DNA of 64,000 nt from a virus: positions 1 through 64,000 of IMG/VR virus record IMGVR_UViG_3300050821_002494. The stretch is one strand, 5' to 3'. The stretch's first letter is position 1. Every line of letters begins with the position of its first letter. Positions 2,980-44,635 of the stretch are shown here, piece after piece. A program made the translations under genes and the position numbers. The notes beneath the pieces are model-generated. The model searched no databases. It was not told the origin of the DNA and saw nothing but the letters and a program-made list of their open reading frames with translations.

Positions 2980-4922
2980 TACGTCGTCCTGCGGTCGTCG
3001 GCCGGCATCATGTGGATCAACGGCGCGCCAGCGAAGTAATTGCCGCCGGTCACGTTCGAGGTGACCTTGAAGCTGGTTAGGCGCTGCGTCCACTGAAAGG
3101 TGATGCCGTCCGGCTCGGTCGGTGTCGGCGCCGCCGGAACCGTATAAGGCGACGTGTCGGGGCTGATGATGTTGGGGTCGCGGGCGGAGGAGCGCGAGTA
3201 GACGTCGAGCGTGAGGTTGCCGACCTGATTGAAGTCGGGCTCCATGACGCCGAAGGATACGCGCTTCGTGCTGGCTACTTGGCCAATCTGTGAGGGCTGG
3301 ATGAGGTTGAATTCGTGCGTCTGGAAGAACGCCATGATGGCCTTAGGCGTAGAGGCGGGTCCACTCACTTCGTCGAGGCCGAACTCGTGCTGCCAGATGC
3401 TGGTCGCGTTTGGACCGACGTCGGGGTTCGTCGCGACGCCGGCCATGATCGGGAAGTTGTAGGTGTTGTCGTAGAAGGCGGCGCTGCGGCCCGAGTTGGG
3501 CAGCGGCGTATCGAACCAGTAGTTCTTCTCGTAGTTAAAGATGACGGCGTGATTGCACTCCGTCGAGTTGCCGAACGGGAAACACCACCACAGCTCCTTC
3601 CACTGCGGTATCTTGAAAGCGAAACACTTTTGCCTTGCCGCGAAGTTCAGGTTCTGCAGGAAGTACTGCTGATTGTAGTCGTTGGGTATGTCGGCCATCG
3701 TGCCGGCGAACATCACGAAGCCGGAGGTCGTCGCCCAGTAGTAGACGCCGTTGTGCTCGATGACGGCGTTCTGCGACAGCAGCGAGCCCTCGGTGCTCAC
3801 GGTGTAGAAGTTCCAGAGGTTCGTGCCGCCGACGAAGTTGCCGACGATCAGCGACGACAGCGACCAGAAGATCGCGGCGGGGGCGGACTGACCGCGCAGC
3901 GGCAGGCCCTTGATGATCTTGTCAGGGACGGGCCGCGAGGAGCCGGCGAGGCCGGGGCTCGTAAAGTCGAGCGGGAAGCCGGGGTTACTCCACTGGATCA
4001 GGCCGTTCGCGCCGTAGAGGAATAGGTAGGGCCCGACTACGCAGAGGCCGCCCGTCGTAGCTAGCGGCGCGGAACCAGCGGCCCATCCGACCGAGATCGT
4101 GTTGGCACCCGAGCTGCCGGATATGAAGACGGAGGTTATCGTGCCGAATTGGCTACCGACGCTCGCTGTTGCGTTATTGGGCAGCGCGGCGGGGCCGACC
4201 GTGAGAGGCGCACCTGCGGGGTTCGTGCCGGTGATCGTGTAGTTGAGAGCCGTCAGGTTGCCGTTCGTCGTCACGGTGATGTTGCCGGCGCCGACAGGGA
4301 TGGGGGAGTTGACGGACAGAATGAGGTTGCCGGCACCTGAGATGGTTTGAGTGAAGGCAACGCCAGCAACTGACGCAACGATGGTGTTGATGGCGGGCTG
4401 CAGCTGCGCGGCTGATAGCACGTCGCCGTAGTAGACGGGTACAGACACGACGGCGGTGATGTCGTTCAGTGACTGAGGTGCAGCCGCGAAGATGTAGGTC
4501 GTGCCAGCCGAGGTGAGGTATATCTCGTCGCTGACCCATAGCGCATTAGGAGAGGAGACGTAGCCAGAGGGCGTGCGATCCACGAGGCCAGTGTTAGTGC
4601 CGTCCACGAGGCTAATCGAGTAGCGCTCGAAGGCGAGCGTGGAGCCCCCGTGAACATAGGAGAAGCCGCCTGAACCGAAGACGTTAAGGTGTCTGCAGAC
4701 GCCGGAGAAGTTGCGAACCTGCTCACGGTAACCGAGCATCTTCAGTGGCTTGTCCAGCCAGAAGCGGTTCCACTGCATATCGATGTAGGTCTGCTTCGCG
4801 AACTTAGTGCCGTCGCGGATACAGCCCGGCTGGGATAGCATCAGCTGCGGCTGATGCGTCGGCATCTTCTGCATCGCCTCTAGGAAGGCGGCGCTGGGGT
4901 CCTGCTGCGGCTGCGGTGGCAT
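2979..4922 (-). CDS. Tail nozzle-like (beta-propeller type) virion protein
   Basis: 647 aa. The N-terminus has QPGCIRDGTKFAKQTYIDMQW and a KMLGYREQVRNFSG segment. The second half repeats Trp/Gly/Tyr-rich blades (SSLIVGNFVGGTNLWNFY, EHNGVYYWATTSGFVMF, NYEKNYWFDTPLPNSGRS). This resembles the phage nozzle/stabilisation family and is comparable in size and position to T7 gp12. It follows the fibre gene by 4 nt. The propeller fold is inferred from blade-like repeats and not proved. It would form the distal tail channel. Confidence 0.55.
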   Translation of the reverse strand: MPPQPQQDPSAAFLEAMQKMPTHQPQLMLSQPGCIRDGTKFAKQTYIDMQWNRFWLDKPLKMLGYREQVRNFSGVCRHLNVFGSGGFSYVHGGSTLAFERYSISLVDGTNTGLVDRTPSGYVSSPNALWVSDEIYLTSAGTTYIFAAAPQSLNDITAVVSVPVYYGDVLSAAQLQPAINTIVASVAGVAFTQTISGAGNLILSVNSPIPVGAGNITVTTNGNLTALNYTITGTNPAGAPLTVGPAALPNNATASVGSQFGTITSVFISGSSGANTISVGWAAGSAPLATTGGLCVVGPYLFLYGANGLIQWSNPGFPLDFTSPGLAGSSRPVPDKIIKGLPLRGQSAPAAIFWSLSSLIVGNFVGGTNLWNFYTVSTEGSLLSQNAVIEHNGVYYWATTSGFVMFAGTMADIPNDYNQQYFLQNLNFAARQKCFAFKIPQWKELWWCFPFGNSTECNHAVIFNYEKNYWFDTPLPNSGRSAAFYDNTYNFPIMAGVATNPDVGPNATSIWQHEFGLDEVSGPASTPKAIMAFFQTHEFNLIQPSQIGQVASTKRVSFGVMEPDFNQVGNLTLDVYSRSSARDPNIISPDTSPYTVPAAPTPTEPDGITFQWTQRLTSFKVTSNVTGGNYFAGAPLIHMMPADDRRTT

Positions 4923-10209: not shown

Positions 10210-11124
10210 TTACGCGCCGGGCGTGCCGTAGAGAGCACGGAAGTTCGTCCAAGACGTATCCCAACGCGAGGTCACCTTGTACCTCATGCTGTCCGTCTCG
10301 AAGTCGCCTTCCATGGACTTCTCGGCCATGCGACGGGTCACGAACTGGAGACCCATGCGCTCGTCGGTGACGATCCACCAAGCGGTGGTAGACGTCAGTC
10401 GAGTGATGACCGTATAACCCTTCGGCAGGATTTTCGTGCTCATCACGGGGTTGATGTCGTTGTTCGCCTGACCAGTACGAAGCGCGGACTTGGTGATCAC
10501 CTCGGCTTGGAATTCGTTGTCCGGGGAGACCACGAGGCCCTGCGGCGAGATACGCACCTTCTTCGTGTCGTTGTCCTGAGCCTTGCGGATTTGGATCAGC
10601 AAGTTCTCGACAGACGTCTGCGAGAGTGCAGCGTTCGTCGGCAGAATGTTGGAGACCGTGCCACCCGAGATCGGATGCGCAGAGTTCACCATCGAGACGC
10701 CGTCGCCACCCGGGAACGAACCCGAGAAGCTGTTGTTCAGCACGTTCGCCGTAGCGGTCTCTTCCGTCTCGATCATCGCCTGACCGAGCTGCTCGGCGAA
10801 AATCTTGCCGAGATTGATATGATCACCGTCCTCGACCAACACCTTCGTCAGAGCGAAGGCGCAGCCATAGACGCGGAAGACGTAGCGCTTGTCGAACAGG
10901 ACGCCACCCGACTTGTAGGTGACCGGCATTCCGTCCGGCATAACCGGCGCGGCGCCGAGACCGAACAGCACGGGCTCGTCATGGTAGGCTCTCTTGATAC
11001 CGGGCTTCACGCGGAAAATCTGTCGATACTCGTCCTTACGAATATCGTAGACGCCGTTGAAGTGCTGGTTCAAAATTGGTTCCACGATCACGCGGAACTG
11101 GGTGGAATTCATCGGGGCAGCCAT
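10210..11124 (-). CDS. Major capsid protein
   Basis: 304 aa, in the HK97-fold size range. The order is an N-terminal helix (MNSTQFRVIVEPILNQHF), a central region with ISPQGLVVSPDNEFQAEVI, then STKILPKGYTVITRL, WWIVTDERMGLQF and the C-terminal block DFETDSMRYKVTSRWDTSWT. The RYK..SR..TSW.N.R..YG.PG ending is typical of podovirus capsid proteins. It lies behind scaffold and the PYGLRPV protein, as in many phages. Its C-terminal block is partly duplicated in a small gene at 32903-33184. Confidence 0.85.
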   Translation of the reverse strand: MAAPMNSTQFRVIVEPILNQHFNGVYDIRKDEYRQIFRVKPGIKRAYHDEPVLFGLGAAPVMPDGMPVTYKSGGVLFDKRYVFRVYGCAFALTKVLVEDGDHINLGKIFAEQLGQAMIETEETATANVLNNSFSGSFPGGDGVSMVNSAHPISGGTVSNILPTNAALSQTSVENLLIQIRKAQDNDTKKVRISPQGLVVSPDNEFQAEVITKSALRTGQANNDINPVMSTKILPKGYTVITRLTSTTAWWIVTDERMGLQFVTRRMAEKSMEGDFETDSMRYKVTSRWDTSWTNFRALYGTPGA

Positions 11125-12644: not shown

Positions 12645-13847
12645 CTACAGCTTGCCTTCGGCGCGGGCTTTCTTGAGGCCCTTCCGCCATGTGTTGATGT
12701 AGCCCTGCCGCTCCTTCAGCTGGTCCTCATTGAGGCCATCCTTCTCAAGCAAGCCGAGGGCGTCGAGAGTTTCCTTCGCCAGAGGCGGGAGGTCACGGTC
12801 GCCTGCGTTGTTGCCGCCACGATTGCCACCCGAGCCTCTGCGGCTGCGGGGAGGCAGGCCACCAGAGCGGCGCTGCGGCGCGACGCGGCGCGGTGCGGGC
12901 TCGTCGTTATCGTCATCGTTGTGGTCGTAACTCACTTCGGCACCCAATCCTCTAGCGCGCACGCGGCTCTCAAGCTCGACCCAGTAGCGCTTGGTGCGGG
13001 GGTTGTAGCCTTCATTTACCAGCGTGTCGTCGATGGCCTTGACCATCTGGCTGTCCTCGTCGGTGTTATCCTTCGGATCGAACCAGTCGTGGCGCTTCAT
13101 GAAGATGCGGCTATATCGCTCGGCGTCGGGATCGACGTCGACTACGCCTTGGCGCTGCTGGCGCTGTTGTGTCTGCTGGCCCTGTGGTACCTGCTGCGCG
13201 ACCACTTCGAGGCGACGACGCTCTGCCCCCAATAGTGCGAGGCGCGCGTTGGCCTCGTCGCGGAGCTTCAGGGCCTTGCGCATCAATGCGCCGTTCTGCT
13301 CCGTCATAGCGCGCTCTACGGCACCATCGATGGTCTCAAGCTGGCCTTGGATGCCTGCGATCTGGGCGTCGATGTCTCCGGCATGGAGGCCAAGCTGGGC
13401 GCGACCCATGTCAGTGACTGCGCCCTCCAGCTGACGGATGCGTGCCTCCTGCTGCTGGATAACGGCCGCGCTTTGGCTGCGGGCCTCCCGGCGGGCGCGG
13501 TTGCGGCGCGCCCGGCGCGAGCCGCGCGGGGCGTCGTAGTCGTCGTCCTCGTCGTCATCATAAGCAACACGGGCCTCGATCTCGTCGTCTACGTCGCCGT
13601 CCTCGTCGTCGACCTTGCCGCCGCGAGCCTTATTGCGGCGAGCCTCGTCGCGGGCGGCCTGCTCGCGGGCGATGCGGTTGTCGTCGCCCTCATCGAAGTC
13701 GTCGTCATCCGTCAGGGTGTCGTCGTTCGAGAGGTCGGTGTCCTTGACCAATGTGCCGTCGGCGTTGAAGTCGCCAGCCTTCTTGGAGGTCTTGTCGTCT
13801 GTACCGAAGTCGTCGTCTTCGACTTCGCGTTCGCGCTGGCGGGCCAT
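12645..13847 (-). CDS. Scaffolding protein
   Basis: 400 aa. The N-terminal 130 residues are strongly acidic (DTLTDDDDFDEGDDNRIA). A coiled-coil follows at about 130-215 (QQEARIRQLEGAVTDMG, KALKLRDEANARLALLGAER). The C-terminus is basic (TWRKGLKKARAEGKL). This acidic-coil-basic order is the hallmark of phage scaffolds, whose basic tail contacts capsid. It lies two genes upstream of the capsid cluster. GGAGTAGCC precedes the ATG. Confidence 0.7.
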   Translation of the reverse strand: MARQREREVEDDDFGTDDKTSKKAGDFNADGTLVKDTDLSNDDTLTDDDDFDEGDDNRIAREQAARDEARRNKARGGKVDDEDGDVDDEIEARVAYDDDEDDDYDAPRGSRRARRNRARREARSQSAAVIQQQEARIRQLEGAVTDMGRAQLGLHAGDIDAQIAGIQGQLETIDGAVERAMTEQNGALMRKALKLRDEANARLALLGAERRRLEVVAQQVPQGQQTQQRQQRQGVVDVDPDAERYSRIFMKRHDWFDPKDNTDEDSQMVKAIDDTLVNEGYNPRTKRYWVELESRVRARGLGAEVSYDHNDDDNDEPAPRRVAPQRRSGGLPPRSRRGSGGNRGGNNAGDRDLPPLAKETLDALGLLEKDGLNEDQLKERQGYINTWRKGLKKARAEGKL

Positions 13848-22089: not shown

Positions 22090-22794
22090 TTAGGCCTTCG
22101 GAGCTATCTGCTTGATGTAGCGAGCGATGCCTTGGCCGGCAGCAATCATGGCCTCACGGCGCCGCTTGTCCTCGACTGCCTTAGCGAGGCGGTCGTAGAT
22201 TGTGAAGTCGTGGGCGTAGCTGGAGACGGCGGCTGCGATGGCCTCGCTGTCGTTGTAGCGCAGCGTCCCGGTCGTGTAGTCGTCAATGTGTGAGATCAGG
22301 CGGGACGGCTTGTCGAAGCCGACGCGGTCGGCGCAGAAGAACTCCCACACGAGGCGGCAGAGAGACTTCTTGCTGTCGTGAACGCCGCAGACCTTACCCA
22401 GCGACGCCATCGTCTCGATGCCGAAGGGCTGCGTGCGCTTCCAGTTGCGGTACGGCAGCGGCGCGAAGGGCTGCGTATCGCATCGCATGAACGTCAGCAG
22501 AGACTTGCCGAACGTGCCAGCCGGGAAGCCGTCGTCACAAATTGAAATCCAGTTGCGGCCAAGGATTTCCTTGGGCTCGGGCTGGAATATCATCTCTGCG
22601 CCCTTGTTGACGAACTCGACAGGGATTTGGTCTCGTCTGGCGATCTGCGAAACAATCCAAGCAGCAGTAAAGCCATCCATACTATCAGGATAAGATACGA
22701 GAAGGACGTCAGTCGGATTAGGCTCCACAGGACCCTGAAGACTAGGGCGCGGAGCAGGAGCGTCCGAAGTAAGCGCACTGTGGCGGTCCTCCAT
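22090..22794 (-). CDS. DHH-phosphoesterase-like protein, degenerate active site
   Basis: 234 aa. LVSYPDSMDGFTAAWIVSQI matches the N-terminal DHH-family pattern (H.n.PDGf.AAW). GVHDSKKSLCRLVWEFF stands where DHH-K-S is expected, and PSRLISHIDDYTTGTLRYND resembles the following I.D.D.W...DSE block. The key DHH triplet reads VHD, so metal catalysis may be lost or changed. The gene lies between TerL and the large module protein, where such an enzyme is not expected. The ATG has GGAGGAG upstream. Confidence 0.55.
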   Translation of the reverse strand: MEDRHSALTSDAPAPRPSLQGPVEPNPTDVLLVSYPDSMDGFTAAWIVSQIARRDQIPVEFVNKGAEMIFQPEPKEILGRNWISICDDGFPAGTFGKSLLTFMRCDTQPFAPLPYRNWKRTQPFGIETMASLGKVCGVHDSKKSLCRLVWEFFCADRVGFDKPSRLISHIDDYTTGTLRYNDSEAIAAAVSSYAHDFTIYDRLAKAVEDKRRREAMIAAGQGIARYIKQIAPKA

Positions 22795-26389: not shown

Positions 26390-26869
26390 CTACTCGGTGG
26401 CGCCGGCCGCGAGCAGGCGTTCGATCATCGCATCGAAGGCGGCGTTCTCGATGGCCTCGTAGGCCTCCGGGGTCGCGAACTTCTGATGAATGGGGCCATC
26501 TGGGTCTTCGACTTCGCGGGTGCCGCAGATGAAGCATTCCGGCAGCGCGCGGACCTCATTCGGGACGTCGTCGTCCTGCTGGCCGACTGGCATCTCGACG
26601 TCGTCTGGCGACACCGGGTTCGTGCCGAGCGGGCCCGTCACGTCGCGGGCGAAGCGGCCGGTCGAGGGCTCGTAGAATTCGAGCGGCTTGCCGGCGATGG
26701 CACGCACGCCGAGGCCGTCGGGGACGTCGATGGAGCCGTTGTGGTAGTCGATGGCGACTTCCCAGCCGTTGGCGCGGAAGGCGTCTTCGATGGTCTTGAG
26801 CGACTGCTTGAACTGCCCGAGGCCGAGGGCGTCGAGGGTCTCGTCGGCGTACTGCTGCATGGTTCTCAT
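26390..26869 (-). CDS. Protein of unknown function
   Basis: 159 aa. Helical N-terminus (MQQYADETLDALGLGQFKQS), a beta segment (GWEVAIDYHNGSIDVPDG), ECFICGTREV (single CxxC), and a helical end AIENAAFDAMIERLLAAG. Unknown. Confidence 0.55.
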   Translation of the reverse strand: MRTMQQYADETLDALGLGQFKQSLKTIEDAFRANGWEVAIDYHNGSIDVPDGLGVRAIAGKPLEFYEPSTGRFARDVTGPLGTNPVSPDDVEMPVGQQDDDVPNEVRALPECFICGTREVEDPDGPIHQKFATPEAYEAIENAAFDAMIERLLAAGATE

Positions 26870-31183: not shown

Positions 31184-32902
31184 TTAGGCATCTAAGCCTT
31201 TGAATGGCAACAGCTTTTGGTCACTTGAGCACTCAGCGACATCCGTAACAACCCAGCACCTAACTAGCTTCACCTTGGATGCACGAACTGGCTGCTGCTC
31301 GAAGCCCATGTTACGCATGATGGTGGCCACACGGTTGGCCACCCTCTTGTCGTGCCGCTCAATTGGCAGCTTGAGGCACTCCTCCAAGATACGAGATGTA
31401 GTAATCACCGTCCCCCAGTGCTTATGCAATTCAAGCTCGCTGGGGTCACCAAACACCTTCGGGGCGTCGCACGTCGGCGCCCCAGTCCACAGCTCGCTGG
31501 CCTCGATCCATGACTGGATGCGGTCGTCCCATGGGTCTGCTGTCAGGTGCTCCATCACGCGCCGGTTGGCTTCCTCCTCAGGCACGACATCCCATCTCTC
31601 GCCCCTCTGGAACAGCACCATCGCCTCAGCGAATAGCTGGTCTCTGTTCTCCCTCAGCCACTCGGTGTCGCACTTGCCTTGCGTGACGATGGACCAGAAC
31701 CTGCGGCCGCCGCTCTCGTCGCCGTGCCACTTGCTGTCGTTGGTCGAGCCACACATCACTGCGGTGCGTTTGAACGTGGCGACCGTGCGGCCGTAGGGTG
31801 GCCTGTAGACATCCTCAGCTGTGCTCAGCAGCGCCTTGACGCGCGTCTTGGCTGTCCCCTTGATGGCGTCTAGCTCAGCGATCTCGGCCACCATGAGGCC
31901 TCTCAGCGACATCAGGAAGTCCTGCATCTTGTCGGCGCTCGTGTTGATGGTGGCGTACCACTTGCCACCTAGGATGCTCAGCGAGGTGGACTTGTAGTTG
32001 CCCTGAGGGCCCAGCAGAACAGGCATCGTATCGCACTTGCAGCCGGGGCTCATGATGCGCGCAACCATGCTCACAATCCAATTGCGGCCCACGGCGCGGT
32101 GGTATCCTGCGTCGTCATCCTCTACGCCATAGACCGTCATCAGCCACGTCGCTAGGCGCAGCTTGCCGTCCCACTCAAGGCCCCTCAGCCACTCCTGTGG
32201 CTCGTTGCGTTCGTCCTGATTAGCGAAGTTGTGTATCGCTGCCTCTGTCTCTGTGCGTGAGAGCCCGGTGGATAGCCTTATGTCCGACATGAGCAGCCAC
32301 TCGTATACGTTGAGTAGGAACGTGTCGTCGACCGGCCTGACAGCTATCACTCTGTCATCCTCACGGCCACCCCAATCAGTGAGATAGTTATTATGAAATG
32401 TGTCCTTCCAGATGCGTCCCTTGCGCCGCGCCTCCAGTATACCGAGCGACTTGAGATGCGTAGCATTCGACGCGAGCTTTGCCGCTAGCTCCTGCTTGCC
32501 TCCTGCGGCCCTCTCGTGCTCAGCGACCTCACTGTGTGGCACACTGGGGTCGTCATCCATCTTGTTGCGTAGCTTGATGCGTGCGCTGATGGCGGTCTGC
32601 TCAGCTAGCTGAGTGCGTATCTGCTTGGCCTTCTTGCGGTACAACATTAGGTTGAAGCGCCGCGCAGTAGGCTCTCCGTCTCCACGCAGCCTGATGGCGT
32701 CGCGGACGTGCATCTCCAGCTTGCTCAGTGCGTAGTCGTCGTTGAACGCGAGCCTGATGAGCAGCTTGTCTTGCTCGTCGCTCAGCGTCATGAGTGGGTC
32801 GCCTATCGAGCGCTGTATCGCACTCACTAGGTGAGACTTGAGGGCCTCGTAGTCATCCTCGAATATGTCTTCTGGGCGCTCGATCTGGTCTAGCTCAGCC
32901 AT
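31184..32902 (-). CDS. VapE/VirE-family P-loop replication protein
   Basis: 572 aa. Walker A: TMPVLLGPQGNYKSTSLSIL. Walker B: GLMVAEIAELDAIKGTAKTR. Arg-finger-type segment: KRTAVMCGSTNDSKWHGDES, GGRRFWSIVT. This order is that of VapE (virulence-associated E) proteins, the helicase part of phage and satellite primase-helicases. The N-terminal 150 residues are helical and carry no primase zinc motif; a separate primase lies at 51 kb. The ATG follows the upstream TAG directly, with GAGGAG. Iterons adjoin its 3' end. Confidence 0.7.
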   Translation of the reverse strand: MAELDQIERPEDIFEDDYEALKSHLVSAIQRSIGDPLMTLSDEQDKLLIRLAFNDDYALSKLEMHVRDAIRLRGDGEPTARRFNLMLYRKKAKQIRTQLAEQTAISARIKLRNKMDDDPSVPHSEVAEHERAAGGKQELAAKLASNATHLKSLGILEARRKGRIWKDTFHNNYLTDWGGREDDRVIAVRPVDDTFLLNVYEWLLMSDIRLSTGLSRTETEAAIHNFANQDERNEPQEWLRGLEWDGKLRLATWLMTVYGVEDDDAGYHRAVGRNWIVSMVARIMSPGCKCDTMPVLLGPQGNYKSTSLSILGGKWYATINTSADKMQDFLMSLRGLMVAEIAELDAIKGTAKTRVKALLSTAEDVYRPPYGRTVATFKRTAVMCGSTNDSKWHGDESGGRRFWSIVTQGKCDTEWLRENRDQLFAEAMVLFQRGERWDVVPEEEANRRVMEHLTADPWDDRIQSWIEASELWTGAPTCDAPKVFGDPSELELHKHWGTVITTSRILEECLKLPIERHDKRVANRVATIMRNMGFEQQPVRASKVKLVRCWVVTDVAECSSDQKLLPFKGLDA

Positions 32903-33184
32903 CTATCGGCTCCTCTTGAGATCACTGCATGGCCAATAGGGCGTGCAGACGCGCGCCATCCGCTTGGCTAGGTGCATCACGTAAGCTATCTGGTGGCGTC
33001 GCATGCCATCCCAGCATCGATCAGGCGTCGTGCCGTAGATCGGGCTGCCGCCGATGCAGCGCGTGTTGACGATGGCGTAGGCGATGCGCTCGCTGGCCTT
33101 GTAGCGCATGCTATCGGTCTCGAAGTCTTCGTCGAAGTCGTGTGCCATCAGACCATGGTAGCGTCGCTGCCGAGCGGCGGTCAA
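32903..33184 (-). CDS. Small protein resembling the major capsid C-terminus
   Basis: 93 aa from TTG at 33184, or 81 aa from ATG at 33148, which sits at the expected start point of the overlapping promoter. DFETDSMRYK is identical over 10 residues to the capsid protein near its C-terminus, followed by SER....NTR..GGSPIYGT like the capsid end. DNA identity over that stretch (33098-33127 against 10276-10305) is 26 of 30. The last 40 residues (RRHQIAYVMHLAKRMARVC) are different. Function unknown; a decoy or assembly modulator is conceivable. Confidence 0.55.
   Translation of the reverse strand: MTAARQRRYHGLMAHDFDEDFETDSMRYKASERIAYAIVNTRCIGGSPIYGTTPDRCWDGMRRHQIAYVMHLAKRMARVCTPYWPCSDLKRSR
33155..33184 (-). 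promoter_or_regulatory. Sigma-70-like promoter with TACCAT -10
   Basis: Minus strand TTGACC, 18-nt spacer, TACCAT. The 17 nt AGCGACGCTACCATGGT are shared exactly with the promoter at 48878-48894. Start of transcription would fall at about the ATG at 33148. Confidence 0.55.
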
Positions 33185-33610
33185 CTAGCGCTTGATCCGT
33201 CGAGGCTTGCGCACAAGGGATGGTATATAGAGATACATCGGGTCACCCTTGAATGCGTGCTTTGGTCTGCCTGCGGGATCGTAGTAGAGGGCGCCGTCAC
33301 GATAGAGCGCCATGTGGGCGGTGCCCACCGCGTGCGTGCCATAGGCTAGGTAGGTGCTCCCGCGATGTCGAGTGAAGCGCTCGCGTGTGAGCTTGTATCC
33401 CCGGCGCCTGAAGAAGGCCGCCATCGCAGCCTCCCAGCCACATCGGCCCTTATCGATGAAGTGAGGCACACGCGAGGGGTGTATGTTGAAGAAGCACGCC
33501 ACCGCGTCGCTGGCGCAGTGGCCAGCCCTAATCCTTCTGGGCTTGATCACGTTGCATCCACGCGAGTAGGGCGCCCTCGTCGCCTTGCTGCGAGGTAGGG
33601 CCACGCGCAT
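33185..33610 (-). CDS. Papain-like/C39-like candidate cysteine protein
   Basis: 141 aa. GHCASDAVACFFNIHPSRVP, HFIDKGRCGWEAAMAAFFRR, TYLAYGTHAVGTAHMALYRD and LYYDPAG follow the layout C...A..l....vPhF...W...l..G.....H..ly.dG..yDP seen in papain-fold phage proteins. Possible Cys/His/Asp triad. The start may be the GTG at 33550, since the first 20 residues overlap the zinc-ribbon gene. Role unknown. Confidence 0.45.
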   Translation of the reverse strand: MRVALPRSKATRAPYSRGCNVIKPRRIRAGHCASDAVACFFNIHPSRVPHFIDKGRCGWEAAMAAFFRRRGYKLTRERFTRHRGSTYLAYGTHAVGTAHMALYRDGALYYDPAGRPKHAFKGDPMYLYIPSLVRKPRRIKR

Positions 33611-33704
33611 TGCAGCCGAGGCAGATCACCTGACTGCGTATCCCGGTGTGCAGCACCTCATAGTAGCGGCCACCGCAGTGTGGGCAGCCCACTGGCGCGA
33701 TCAC
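33528..33704 (-). CDS. Lar-like zinc ribbon, short
   Basis: 58 aa from GTG. GCPHCGGRYYEVLHT, VICLGCNARGPTSQQ and GALLAWMQRD give CPxCGG....ICxxCxARGP....A...W, the Lar/restriction-alleviation zinc-ribbon pattern. The GTG overlaps the stop of the longer Lar-like gene. It could modify restriction behaviour of the host (known for Lar) or simply bind DNA. Confidence 0.55.
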   Translation of the reverse strand: MIAPVGCPHCGGRYYEVLHTGIRSQVICLGCNARGPTSQQGDEGALLAWMQRDQAQKD

Positions 33705-34279
33705 GGCTTCTTACCTTCGTGTAAAGGGGAGAGGGCGGCCTCAGCTAATTCCAACGCCAGCATTTGCGATGGGTCCGAGAAGTGAGGTTTCGCGAGCGCT
33801 ATTAGGTTCCGCAGCGCTTCCCTCACTCCCTCACCGTCCTCTGCTGGCGCGGATGGGCGTGCTGGGGCATCGTTAGGATCACAGTCGCACTCGCCACGAC
33901 ACGCGGGGTAACGGCAACGCGCGGATGGGCGTGTGAGAGCGCGGATGTCTCTCGTGATTGCAGCGGCAGCGGCTCGATATCCTTTGTCCCAAGGCTCAAC
34001 CGACTGCGGATTGACCACCGCATATTTCATCGACGCGCTTGCCGCCGCCTCTATCGCCTCGCCCCAGGATGGGCGTGCTTCGTCGCTGCGCTGGGCGCGG
34101 AGGTTCCAAGCGGCGATGGATGCAGCTTGCGTTGGAGCGAGAACTTGGCCCTGACAATCATCGCAAGCGACATACCATTCGGTGGCTGTGTCTGCGCCCT
34201 CCACGATGTTTGCACCACCGCAAAACGGGCACGGCTCCAGCCGCTCGACGATATCCGGCAGCTTCTTGTGCGAGGTCAT
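33701..34279 (-). CDS. Lar-like zinc-ribbon protein with long C-terminus
   Basis: 192 aa. Residues 15-63 are LEPCPFCGGANIVEG, WYVACDDCQGQVLAPTQAAS and AAWNLRA, a Lar-type ribbon. A second, Cys-rich patch (ARCRYPACRGECDCDPNDAP) sits in the middle, then a helical end (EALRNLIALAKPHF). Phage proteins of this build are common in early operons. An anti-restriction role is inferred from family only. Confidence 0.6.
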   Translation of the reverse strand: MTSHKKLPDIVERLEPCPFCGGANIVEGADTATEWYVACDDCQGQVLAPTQAASIAAWNLRAQRSDEARPSWGEAIEAAASASMKYAVVNPQSVEPWDKGYRAAAAAITRDIRALTRPSARCRYPACRGECDCDPNDAPARPSAPAEDGEGVREALRNLIALAKPHFSDPSQMLALELAEAALSPLHEGKKP

Positions 34280-39499: not shown

Positions 39500-39910
39500 A
39501 TGAAGATACCCGACAGACAGCTTTATCCCGACCCCGTGACTGCCTTCGAGTTCGGGCAGCGCTGCGCCCGCAACTTCGCGGACATGGACCGCCCCGTGAC
39601 CGACTTCCGCTGGATGTTCGACAACCGCGACGGCACCGAGGGGACGTGGGAGGACTTCTGCGAGGGCTTCAACGGCTTCAGGCCCTGCACCCACTTCGTG
39701 GGCTTCAGGGGCGAGGAGTTCTGGTCAGCGGTGCGCGTGTGGGGCCGCCCCGACTTCACGCACCGCCACTGGGACCGCCGCGTGCCCGGCGACGTCGCGC
39801 CCGGCGACACGGTGGTGTTCGCGCGAGGCACCGATCAGGACCCCTTCGTGCCGTTCGTGTTCAACGACAGCGACGTGGATGTGCAGGCCTTTGAAAATAA
39901 ATCGCGCTAG
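39500..39910 (+). CDS. First rightward gene, unknown function
   Basis: 136 aa after GGAGGCAAGTC. FEFGQRCARNFADMDRPVTD, TWEDFCEGFNGFRPCTHFVG, HRHWDRRVPGDVAPGDTVVF. It has three Cys and a Trp/His-rich end. The stop TAG lies inside cassette A. Unknown host-takeover candidate from position. Confidence 0.6.
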   Translation: MKIPDRQLYPDPVTAFEFGQRCARNFADMDRPVTDFRWMFDNRDGTEGTWEDFCEGFNGFRPCTHFVGFRGEEFWSAVRVWGRPDFTHRHWDRRVPGDVAPGDTVVFARGTDQDPFVPFVFNDSDVDVQAFENKSR

Positions 39911-39943
39911 GGTGTTGACGACCCCGCCAAGAGGGAGTAAGTA
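39893..39943 (+). promoter_or_regulatory. Cassette A: promoter plus reverse terminator
   Basis: GAAAATAAATC, then a GGGT/ACCC stem around TTGACG (39915), 17-nt spacer, TAAGTA (39938). On the minus strand the stem is followed by GATTTATTTT. The promoter serves the 51-aa gene. Confidence 0.65.
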
Positions 39944-39949
39944 GAGGTC

Positions 39950-40105
39950 ATGTTTGATTTTCCCCTCGCCTTCTTCGATGCGATCCGGCTTCGGATCGAG
40001 TTCGAGATGTTCCGGTCTCTCAGCCGGAACCACCACTTCGACGACGCCACCGGCCGGAGGCACTTCGTTGCGGCCCGGCTGGCGGCCTTCAAGAGGGCAA
40101 AATAA
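39950..40105 (+). CDS. Small aromatic/basic protein
   Basis: 51 aa: MFDFPLAFFDAIRLRIEFEM then HHFDDATGRRHFVAARLAAF. GTAGAGGTC before the ATG. It ends AAA TAA in the next cassette. A short GR.HFVAA tail; unknown. Confidence 0.5.
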   Translation: MFDFPLAFFDAIRLRIEFEMFRSLSRNHHFDDATGRRHFVAARLAAFKRAK

Positions 40106-40148
40106 ATCGCGCTAGGGGGTTGCAATCCCCTAGCTTCGGGCGCATATT
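40098..40148 (+). promoter_or_regulatory. Cassette B: promoter plus reverse terminator
   Basis: An 8-bp perfect stem GCTAGGGG/CCCCTAGC carries TTGCAA (40120) in its loop, then 17 nt and CATATT (40143). The reverse strand has stem then GCGATTTATTTT, a good intrinsic terminator for leftward transcripts. Confidence 0.7.
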
Positions 40149-42073: not shown

Positions 42074-42616
42074 ATGATCGACCAGACATTTGCAGACGTC
42101 GCTACGCCGCTGATCCGCGCCCGGCTGGAGAAGGTTCTCGGCATCGAGTTCCCAAAGGTGCCTGTCGTCGTGAAGGAGCACCTCACATGGGAGGACAGCT
42201 GGGGCTACACCCCAGAAGACGTCGCCGAGTACCCCGCCGGCCCCGAGGGCGTCGCGATGGGCATCACCAACTTCGATCAGGACGAGGTGGCCGCCCCCAA
42301 CCATGTGATCCTGTACGCCAAGCAGCTGAGCCCTAGCTACAACATGATGGCGGCACTGATGACAGGCGTGGGTCCATTCGATGAGTACGCGTGGGCAGCT
42401 GCCGTGCTGGCGCACGAGCTGATCCACACCACCCTGCCGGCCTACTATGGCCATGTGGGAGCCTTCGTTGACCGCGCGCGCCGCGCCGGCCTCATTGGTC
42501 CCCCGACGTCTTCCTTCCCGGGGTCAGACTTCGCGCAGTGGGTCGAGCAGGTGGTCGTGCCGGCCTATAAAAAAGTGGCCAGCCCTATTGCAATCTCCCG
42601 CGTGATGGGAGTATAA
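42074..42616 (+). CDS. SprT-like metallopeptidase A
   Basis: 180 aa. VLAHELIHTTLPAYYGHVGA FVDRARRAG carries HExxH and the downstream GHxxxF of SprT/zincin-type phage proteins. The N-terminal 100 residues resemble those of the second copy at 42819. The C-terminal 15 residues (KKVASPIAISRVMGV) are encoded by cassette E, so the gene lost its usual stop. It may cut or bind a host protein. The family role in phages is unclear. Confidence 0.6.
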   Translation: MIDQTFADVATPLIRARLEKVLGIEFPKVPVVVKEHLTWEDSWGYTPEDVAEYPAGPEGVAMGITNFDQDEVAAPNHVILYAKQLSPSYNMMAALMTGVGPFDEYAWAAAVLAHELIHTTLPAYYGHVGAFVDRARRAGLIGPPTSSFPGSDFAQWVEQVVVPAYKKVASPIAISRVMGV

Positions 42617-42818: not shown

Positions 42819-43340
42819 ATGCAGCTCTATCCACACATCCTGATCGACGCCATCGCCAACGCGGCGCGTCGTGACCTCTTCGAGCCGGCGGGGGTTGACC
42901 TCCCGCCGGTGCCGATCCAGATCGGGCTGGTCGGCAAGGTCAGCGCCGAGGATCGCGTCGATGCCCAGACCCAGTACATGCCGGCCCCCTCTGACATGAC
43001 GCGCCCCTCGAAGCGCGTGCTAGCGATTCTGGAGGCGGCCACTGTCCCGGTCCATGCGCCGTTCTTGCTGGCTATCACCAATGACCTAGAAGACTTCTAC
43101 GGCGGTCCCAAGGGCCGCCTCACGCTGGCCTCGACGCTGGTGCATGAGATGGTCCACACCGCCTTCGACAGCGCCGTAGGTCACGGCCCCCGCTTCGTGC
43201 GGCTGATGCACAAGGTCGGCCTCACCGGCACGCCGGAGAAGAGCGTCGCCAGCCCACGCTTCGAGCGCTGGTTCGACAAAACTGTGATGCCTGAATACGA
43301 GGCTCAGGTGGCCCGCATGGAGGAGATGATCAATGGATGA
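42819..43340 (+). CDS. SprT-like metallopeptidase B
   Basis: 173 aa. TLVHEMVHTAFDSAVGHGPR FVRLMHKVG shows HExxH plus GHGpxF, the SprT pattern. PSPRFERWFD-type C-terminal segment aligns with the FAQWVEQ segment of copy A, so they are paralogs. ATG 4 nt after the previous stop. Confidence 0.6.
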   Translation: MQLYPHILIDAIANAARRDLFEPAGVDLPPVPIQIGLVGKVSAEDRVDAQTQYMPAPSDMTRPSKRVLAILEAATVPVHAPFLLAITNDLEDFYGGPKGRLTLASTLVHEMVHTAFDSAVGHGPRFVRLMHKVGLTGTPEKSVASPRFERWFDKTVMPEYEAQVARMEEMING

Positions 43341-44262: not shown

Positions 44263-44592
44263 ATGCGTACCGAAATGAACGACCGCACGCTGGCGCGCTA
44301 CCTCGGGCTCGACCGCGAGGAATTCGATTGGCTGAAGCTCCGGCTGACGCCGGAGAAGCTGGAGGACTATCGGCTGCTCGCGGAGGTCGCTGTGACGCTG
44401 GAGCAGTACGCCACCCGCTACAACCGGCCGCCGAAGGCGACGGAGGAGAGCGACGCCGCCCTGATGGCCGCCCAGAGCCGCGCATTTGCCCGCCTAGAGC
44501 AAAACGCTCAGCACGGGGCCGGTCACCGCCAAGAGAGGGGCGACCGGCCTCTACGGCCAATTATGGGCGTCTGCTACCTTACGCGAAAATAA
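44263..44592 (+). CDS. Protein of unknown function
   Basis: 109 aa: RTLARYLGLDREEFDWLKLR, VAVTLEQYATRYNRPPKATE, then a Gln/Arg-rich end. Ends in cassette F (CGA AAA TAA). The helical N-terminus may be a small HTH. Confidence 0.5.
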   Translation: MRTEMNDRTLARYLGLDREEFDWLKLRLTPEKLEDYRLLAEVAVTLEQYATRYNRPPKATEESDAALMAAQSRAFARLEQNAQHGAGHRQERGDRPLRPIMGVCYLTRK

Positions 44593-44635
44593 ATCGCGGT
44601 GAGGGCTTGAAATTGGGGCCCAGAGGGCGTATCTC
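44585..44635 (+). promoter_or_regulatory. Cassette F: promoter plus reverse terminator
   Basis: TTGAAA (44607), 17-nt spacer, TATCTC (44630). Reverse strand: GGGC...GCCC stem, then GCGATTTATTTT. Confidence 0.65.

What the first reader, a model, noticed from the sequence alone, without database searches (positions are those of the whole stretch)
32903..33184. Small early-type gene carries a piece of the major capsid C-terminus
DFETDSMRYK is identical in this short protein and in the capsid protein, and the following SER...NTR..GGSPIYGT echoes the capsid end. The DNA matches at 26 of 30 positions (33098-33127 against 10276-10305). The rest of the protein is different. Some defence systems sense capsid proteins, so a free capsid-end mimic could act as decoy, or it could tune assembly. 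It may also be a leftover from recombination.
Basis: partly seen in the sequence, partly recalled or inferred. Interest (0 to 1): 0.75.

Follow-up and report, generated by a model that had tools for sequence, protein, structure and literature searches.

The report
Capsid scrap inside small phage gene
A small gene found only in this phage carries 14 amino acids that match a near-invariant stretch of the virus shell protein far better than chance allows, most likely a short scrap picked up by recombination; nothing found shows that it works as a capsid mimic.

Summary
The minus-strand ORF 32903-33184 (ATG at 33148, 81 aa) abuts a VapE-type helicase/primase gene and shares DFETDSMRYK exactly with the phage's own major capsid protein. 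This is not chance: a profile of 61 capsid C-termini from other phages finds this ORF at E=5e-10 among 1258 six-frame window ORFs, the next best is 0.68, and 20,000 shuffles reach at most 14.5 bits against 35.5. The match extends only to DFETDSMRYKASER (14 residues). Its last four residues fit other phages' capsids (KATER/KASER), not this phage's (KVTSR). The claimed further echo (NTR..GGSPIYGT) is not supported by a tail-only profile. The 26/30 DNA identity adds nothing, because codon bias alone gives 25/30 for the same peptide. No homologue of the small gene was found in IMG/VR, GenBank phages, plasmids, 85,000 genomes, Pfam, PHROGs or NCBIfam. The nearest phage with a VapE gene lacks it there. 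The best reading is a roughly 42-nt capsid-gene patch, from a capsid unlike the present one, captured by short-homology recombination into an orphan accessory gene. A decoy or assembly regulator is possible but has no positive evidence.

The parts
32903..33184 (-). Small orphan ORF: TTG start at 33184 gives 93 aa; ATG start at 33148 gives 81 aa (MAHDFDEDFETDSMRYKASERIAYAIVNTR...). Start not determined.
   Evidence: Open frame that exactly fills the gap between the 141-aa ORF (stop 33185-33187) and the VapE gene (ATG 32902). GC3 0.80; best of six frames by codon log-odds, though only at the 16th percentile of real stretches and reached by 4% of open wrong-frame stretches.
33086..33127 (-). Capsid-like patch, codons 8-21: DFETDSMRYKASER
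   Evidence: Profile E=5e-10, 5e-11 with all capsid ends; 14/14 identical to capsids of L003, L004, L012.
33128..33139 (-). GACTTCGACGAA (DFDE), which nearly duplicates the first 8 bases of the patch (GACTTCGA); possible microhomology at the left join
   Evidence: Read from the sequence; inference only.
10210..11124 (-). Major capsid protein, 304 aa
   Evidence: PF25209 Phage_capsid_4 E=8e-11, above cut-off; phrog_4523 E=4e-13.
10264..10305 (-). The corresponding capsid segment, DFETDSMRYKVTSR
31184..32902 (-). VapE-like helicase/primase gene directly downstream; its AGGAG ribosome-binding site lies inside the last codons of the small ORF
   Evidence: PF05272 E=4e-62; sequence.
33185..33610 (-). 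Upstream 141-aa ORF of unknown function (phrog_5845)
   Evidence: phrog_5845 E=6e-13.

Best explanation
The ORF is an orphan accessory gene in the gene string just upstream of the VapE helicase/primase. Codons 8-21 descend from the conserved C-terminal segment of a major capsid gene of this capsid family. The donor was probably not the present capsid gene: the patch keeps the KA[ST]ER form that most relatives have, whereas this phage's own capsid lineage has KVTSR. The patch is only about 42 nt and its flanks are unrelated to capsid genes, so the likeliest route is short-homology (illegitimate or homeologous) recombination, perhaps at GACTTCGA, between the gene and a capsid gene of a co-infecting or ancestral phage. 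Shown: the non-random match, its 14-residue limit, the closer fit to other phages' capsids, and the lack of homologues in the collections searched. Inferred: the copying event, its mechanism, expression of the product, and that the patch has no capsid-related role (a passenger inside whatever the small protein does).
For: Profile of independent capsid ends: E=5e-10, next ORF 0.68; reversed-ORF control nothing below 0.65; shuffles at most 14.5 bits vs 35.5. ASER fits the capsids of L003/L004/L012 at 14/14 and the ATER majority, not the own-clade VTSR. Match stops after ASER. Only capsid C-termini, no second copy of the gene, in 50 records, in GenBank phages and in IMG/VR pattern scans; none in plasmids or genomes. 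G005, the one record with a related VapE (31%), has another ORF at that place. Patch codons are somewhat closer to preferred usage than the rest (top 6% vs top 70% of redraws), as a capsid origin would allow.
Against: No donor DNA or junction was found. The best capsid DNA is 29/30 over the 10-mer (L055), and that capsid is of the VTSR type. DNA identity does not exceed what codon bias gives to a shared peptide, so copying of DNA is not shown directly. No relative without the patch exists to prove an insertion.
Confidence: 0.55

Rival explanations
1. Functional capsid-peptide mimic: the small protein displays the conserved capsid segment to occupy a capsid partner (host sensor, assembly factor, or another phage's capsid) as a decoy or regulator.
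For: The segment is the most invariant part of the capsid C-terminus and is kept letter for letter in the small gene; the ORF is intact. Bacterial systems that sense capsid protein exist: CapRel-SJ46 (PMC9712102) and staphylococcal Thoeris (PMC11312562).
Against: No homologue, hence no sign of selection. Only 14 residues. The described sensors depend on other features: CapRel escape maps to L114/I115 of Gp57, and Thoeris is reported to sense the hexameric capsid form. The lone-sequence model makes the segment helical while the capsid model has strands there; both models have low confidence. No defence-related family hit.
Confidence: 0.15
2. Spurious ORF: the patch lies in DNA between two genes and the frame is not translated.
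For: No clear ribosome-binding site before ATG 33148 or TTG 33184. Codon log-odds outside the patch are low (0.08), and 4% of open wrong-frame stretches score as high as the whole ORF.
Against: The frame exactly fills a 282-nt gap between abutting genes, is the best of six frames, and its score is like that of neighbouring early ORFs. A protein-level match in frame to the capsid also suits a translated segment.
Confidence: 0.17
3. Convergence: an unrelated protein evolved or drifted to the same 14-residue motif without any copying of DNA.
For: DNA identity is no higher than codon bias predicts for the shared peptide.
Against: About 2e-4 shared 10-mers expected in the proteome, and A[ST]ER is only 1 of 19,242 four-mers in the gene set. 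No family of the small protein is known in which such a motif is conserved.
Confidence: 0.1

Closest known systems
Mosaic / chimeric phage genes made by illegitimate or homeologous recombination (discussed in PMC2327257)
   Same: Short segment of one gene found in an unrelated gene, abrupt ends, unrelated flanks, found in one phage only.
   Different: The segment is very short (about 42 nt) and comes from the most conserved part of the capsid gene; no donor or parental gene was found.
Phage_capsid_4 (PF25209) major capsid proteins
   Same: 14 residues of the conserved C-terminus.
   Different: Everything else: 81 aa instead of 304, no capsid fold predicted, gene lies by the replication genes.
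Satellite capsid-remodelling proteins such as TcaP of PLE (PMC10945586)
   Different: No sequence or structural link was found here; the gene sits in an ordinary phage-sized record (69 kb) that has its own capsid gene.

Membership tests
Phage major capsid protein (PF25209 / phrog_4523) | Whole-protein match to the family profile | tested here: not met
   No Pfam or PHROG hit for the small protein at E up to 1 and 10, while the true capsid hits both.
Phage major capsid protein (PF25209 / phrog_4523) | C-terminal segment GDFETDSMRYKA[ST]ERY...R..YGTPG | tested here: inconclusive
   First 14 residues present; the remainder is not recognisable (tail-only profile).
Capsid-derived decoy / anti-defence protein | Binds a capsid sensor or blocks its activation | not testable with these tools
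   Needs binding or infection assays.
Capsid-derived decoy / anti-defence protein | Conserved as an intact gene in relatives under selection | tested here: not met
   No homologue in 50 related records or in the large collections; but no close relative is held.
Recombinational patch (mosaic gene) | Segment related to another gene with abrupt loss of similarity on both sides | tested here: met
   Similarity spans codons 8-21 only.
Recombinational patch (mosaic gene) | Donor or patch-free ancestor identified | tested here: not met
   None found; best capsid DNA 29/30 over the 10-mer (L055), of the wrong VTSR type.
Diversity-generating retroelement template/variable repeat pair (considered) | Long near-identical repeat pair differing at adenines | tested here: not met
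   The repeat is 31 nt at 87% and is the only pairing of the gene in the genome.

The most novel reading that the evidence does not exclude
The small protein is a dedicated capsid-peptide mimic that this phage makes from its replication region to occupy a host sensor or another phage's capsid machinery, built from a capsid type other than its own so that it does not disturb its own assembly.
Probability: 0.07. Interest if true: 0.8.

Novelty: new member of a known kind. Interest (0 to 1): 0.3.

Why it matters
It gives a clear case in which a highly conserved capsid peptide has entered an unrelated small phage gene, useful for thinking about how orphan phage genes form and about how small recombination patches can be. 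If it proved to be a mimic it would be a new way to deal with capsid sensing, but present evidence does not carry that.

Tried and rejected
(1) Samunavirus tblastn match to residues 30-64: out of frame within an annotated gene, hence chance. It also shows that single-genome E-values near 5e-5 can be chance once many records are searched. (2) IMG/VR scan for RCW[DE]GMR: 16 loci, none similar outside the pattern. (3) YGTTP..CW scans of IMG/VR and genomes: 0 and 14 loci; those 14 share only the pattern itself and are unrelated frames. (4) Alignments running past the capsid stop in G022 and G025: the translations show no similarity there. (5) Scans with the VapE and the 141-aa neighbour to find the same neighbourhood elsewhere: none. 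(6) AlphaFold of the small protein (pLDDT 58) and of the capsid (pLDDT 36): too weak for a fold comparison, so no fold search was run. (7) DHH-like gene 22090-22794 with a weak 20-residue match to the small protein (E=0.06): not beyond chance in an all-against-all comparison. (8) Solved structures: nothing meaningful. (9) Diversity-generating repeat pair: rejected.

Full report
What is there. The window is most of a 69,246-base virus record. On the minus strand, in a string of small genes, the frame 32903-33184 is open: TTG at 33184, ATG at 33148, stop at 32903-32905. It fits exactly between a 141-aa ORF (stop 33185-33187; phrog_5845) and a VapE-like helicase/primase (ATG 32902; PF05272 E=4e-62), whose AGGAG lies in the last codons of the small ORF. 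The capsid gene is 10210-11124 minus (PF25209, phrog_4523). Codon statistics favour the small frame over the five others. They are modest outside the patch (0.08 bits per codon against 0.02 and -0.07 for two neighbouring early ORFs), and no clear ribosome-binding site precedes either start. I take it as probably, not certainly, a gene.

Is the resemblance real? DFETDSMRYK is shared exactly with the phage's own capsid. With this proteome's composition about 2e-4 shared 10-mers are expected; own-genome blastn gives E=3e-5 and blastp within the proteome 9e-5, or roughly 0.01 after counting all genes. A stronger test does not use the phage's own capsid at all: 61 capsid C-termini from other phages, fetched with the capsid and not with the small protein, make a profile that scores this ORF E=5e-10 among 1258 six-frame ORFs, with the next best at 0.68. 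With all capsid ends included it is 5e-11, and reversed ORFs give nothing below 0.65. The best of 20,000 shuffles reaches 14.5 bits against 35.5. One caution: the capsid set was fetched with patterns from the own capsid, one of which was MEGDFETD, so the sampled ends lean towards that motif.

How far does it reach? A profile of the capsid tail after MRYK gives no reportable domain in the ORF, so the NTR..GGSPIYGT echo has no statistical support. The DNA match is not extra evidence: redrawing codons for the same peptide with this genome's usage gives 25.1 of 30 identical bases on average and at least 26 in 40% of draws. The best capsid DNA found, L055, has 29 of 30 (3% of draws) but encodes the VTSR form. 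So the shared thing is a 14-residue peptide, codons 8-21 (33086-33127).

Relatives. Small-protein searches of IMG/VR, 50 related records, GenBank phages, plasmids and 85,000 bacterial and archaeal genomes, and patterns from its second half, returned only capsid ends or chance matches. Pfam, PHROGs, NCBIfam and PADLOC have nothing. The one related record with a VapE relative, G005 (31% identity), has another ORF at that place. No close relative of this phage is held, so absence in relatives is weak evidence, and no test of selection is possible.

Mechanism. I think a short stretch of a capsid gene of the common KA[ST]ER type was copied into this accessory gene. The short length, abrupt ends and lack of homologues fit patchwork recombination, and the near-duplicate GACTTCGA at the left edge (DFDE-DFET) could be the microhomology used; that is inference from the sequence. 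Patch codons are slightly closer to preferred usage than the rest. Expression of the product and any role are unproven. A capsid mimic remains possible, since capsid-sensing defences exist (PMC9712102, PMC11312562). Those systems, however, depend on other capsid features, and the models made here are too weak to show that the segment keeps any capsid shape.

Verdict. Interest is modest.

Noticed in passing
39894-39912, 40099-40117, 44586-44604 (+): A-rich repeat AAAATAAATCGCGCTAGGG, two exact copies and one with two mismatches, where 0.02 are expected by chance; possibly a phage promoter or operator.
   Followed up: partly
42074-42616 and 42819-43340 (+): Two neighbouring paralogous genes with HELIH / HEMVH motifs that look like zinc metallopeptidases (blastp E=1e-9 between them).
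   Followed up: no
33528-33704 and 33701-34279 (-): Two adjacent ORFs with a Lar-like (restriction alleviation) zinc-ribbon segment; only the longer one passes the Pfam cut-off.
   Followed up: no
12645-13847 (-) and 26390-26869 (-): An exact 8-mer ETLDALGL shared by a charged protein coded close to the capsid gene and a small gene elsewhere; by the same formula about 0.05 expected, possibly chance.
   Followed up: partly
L038:1880-1963 (-) and 4095-4178 (+): One 5.2-kb contig carries two capsid ends of this family on opposite strands (KATER and KASER types), perhaps a misassembly or two capsid genes.
   Followed up: no
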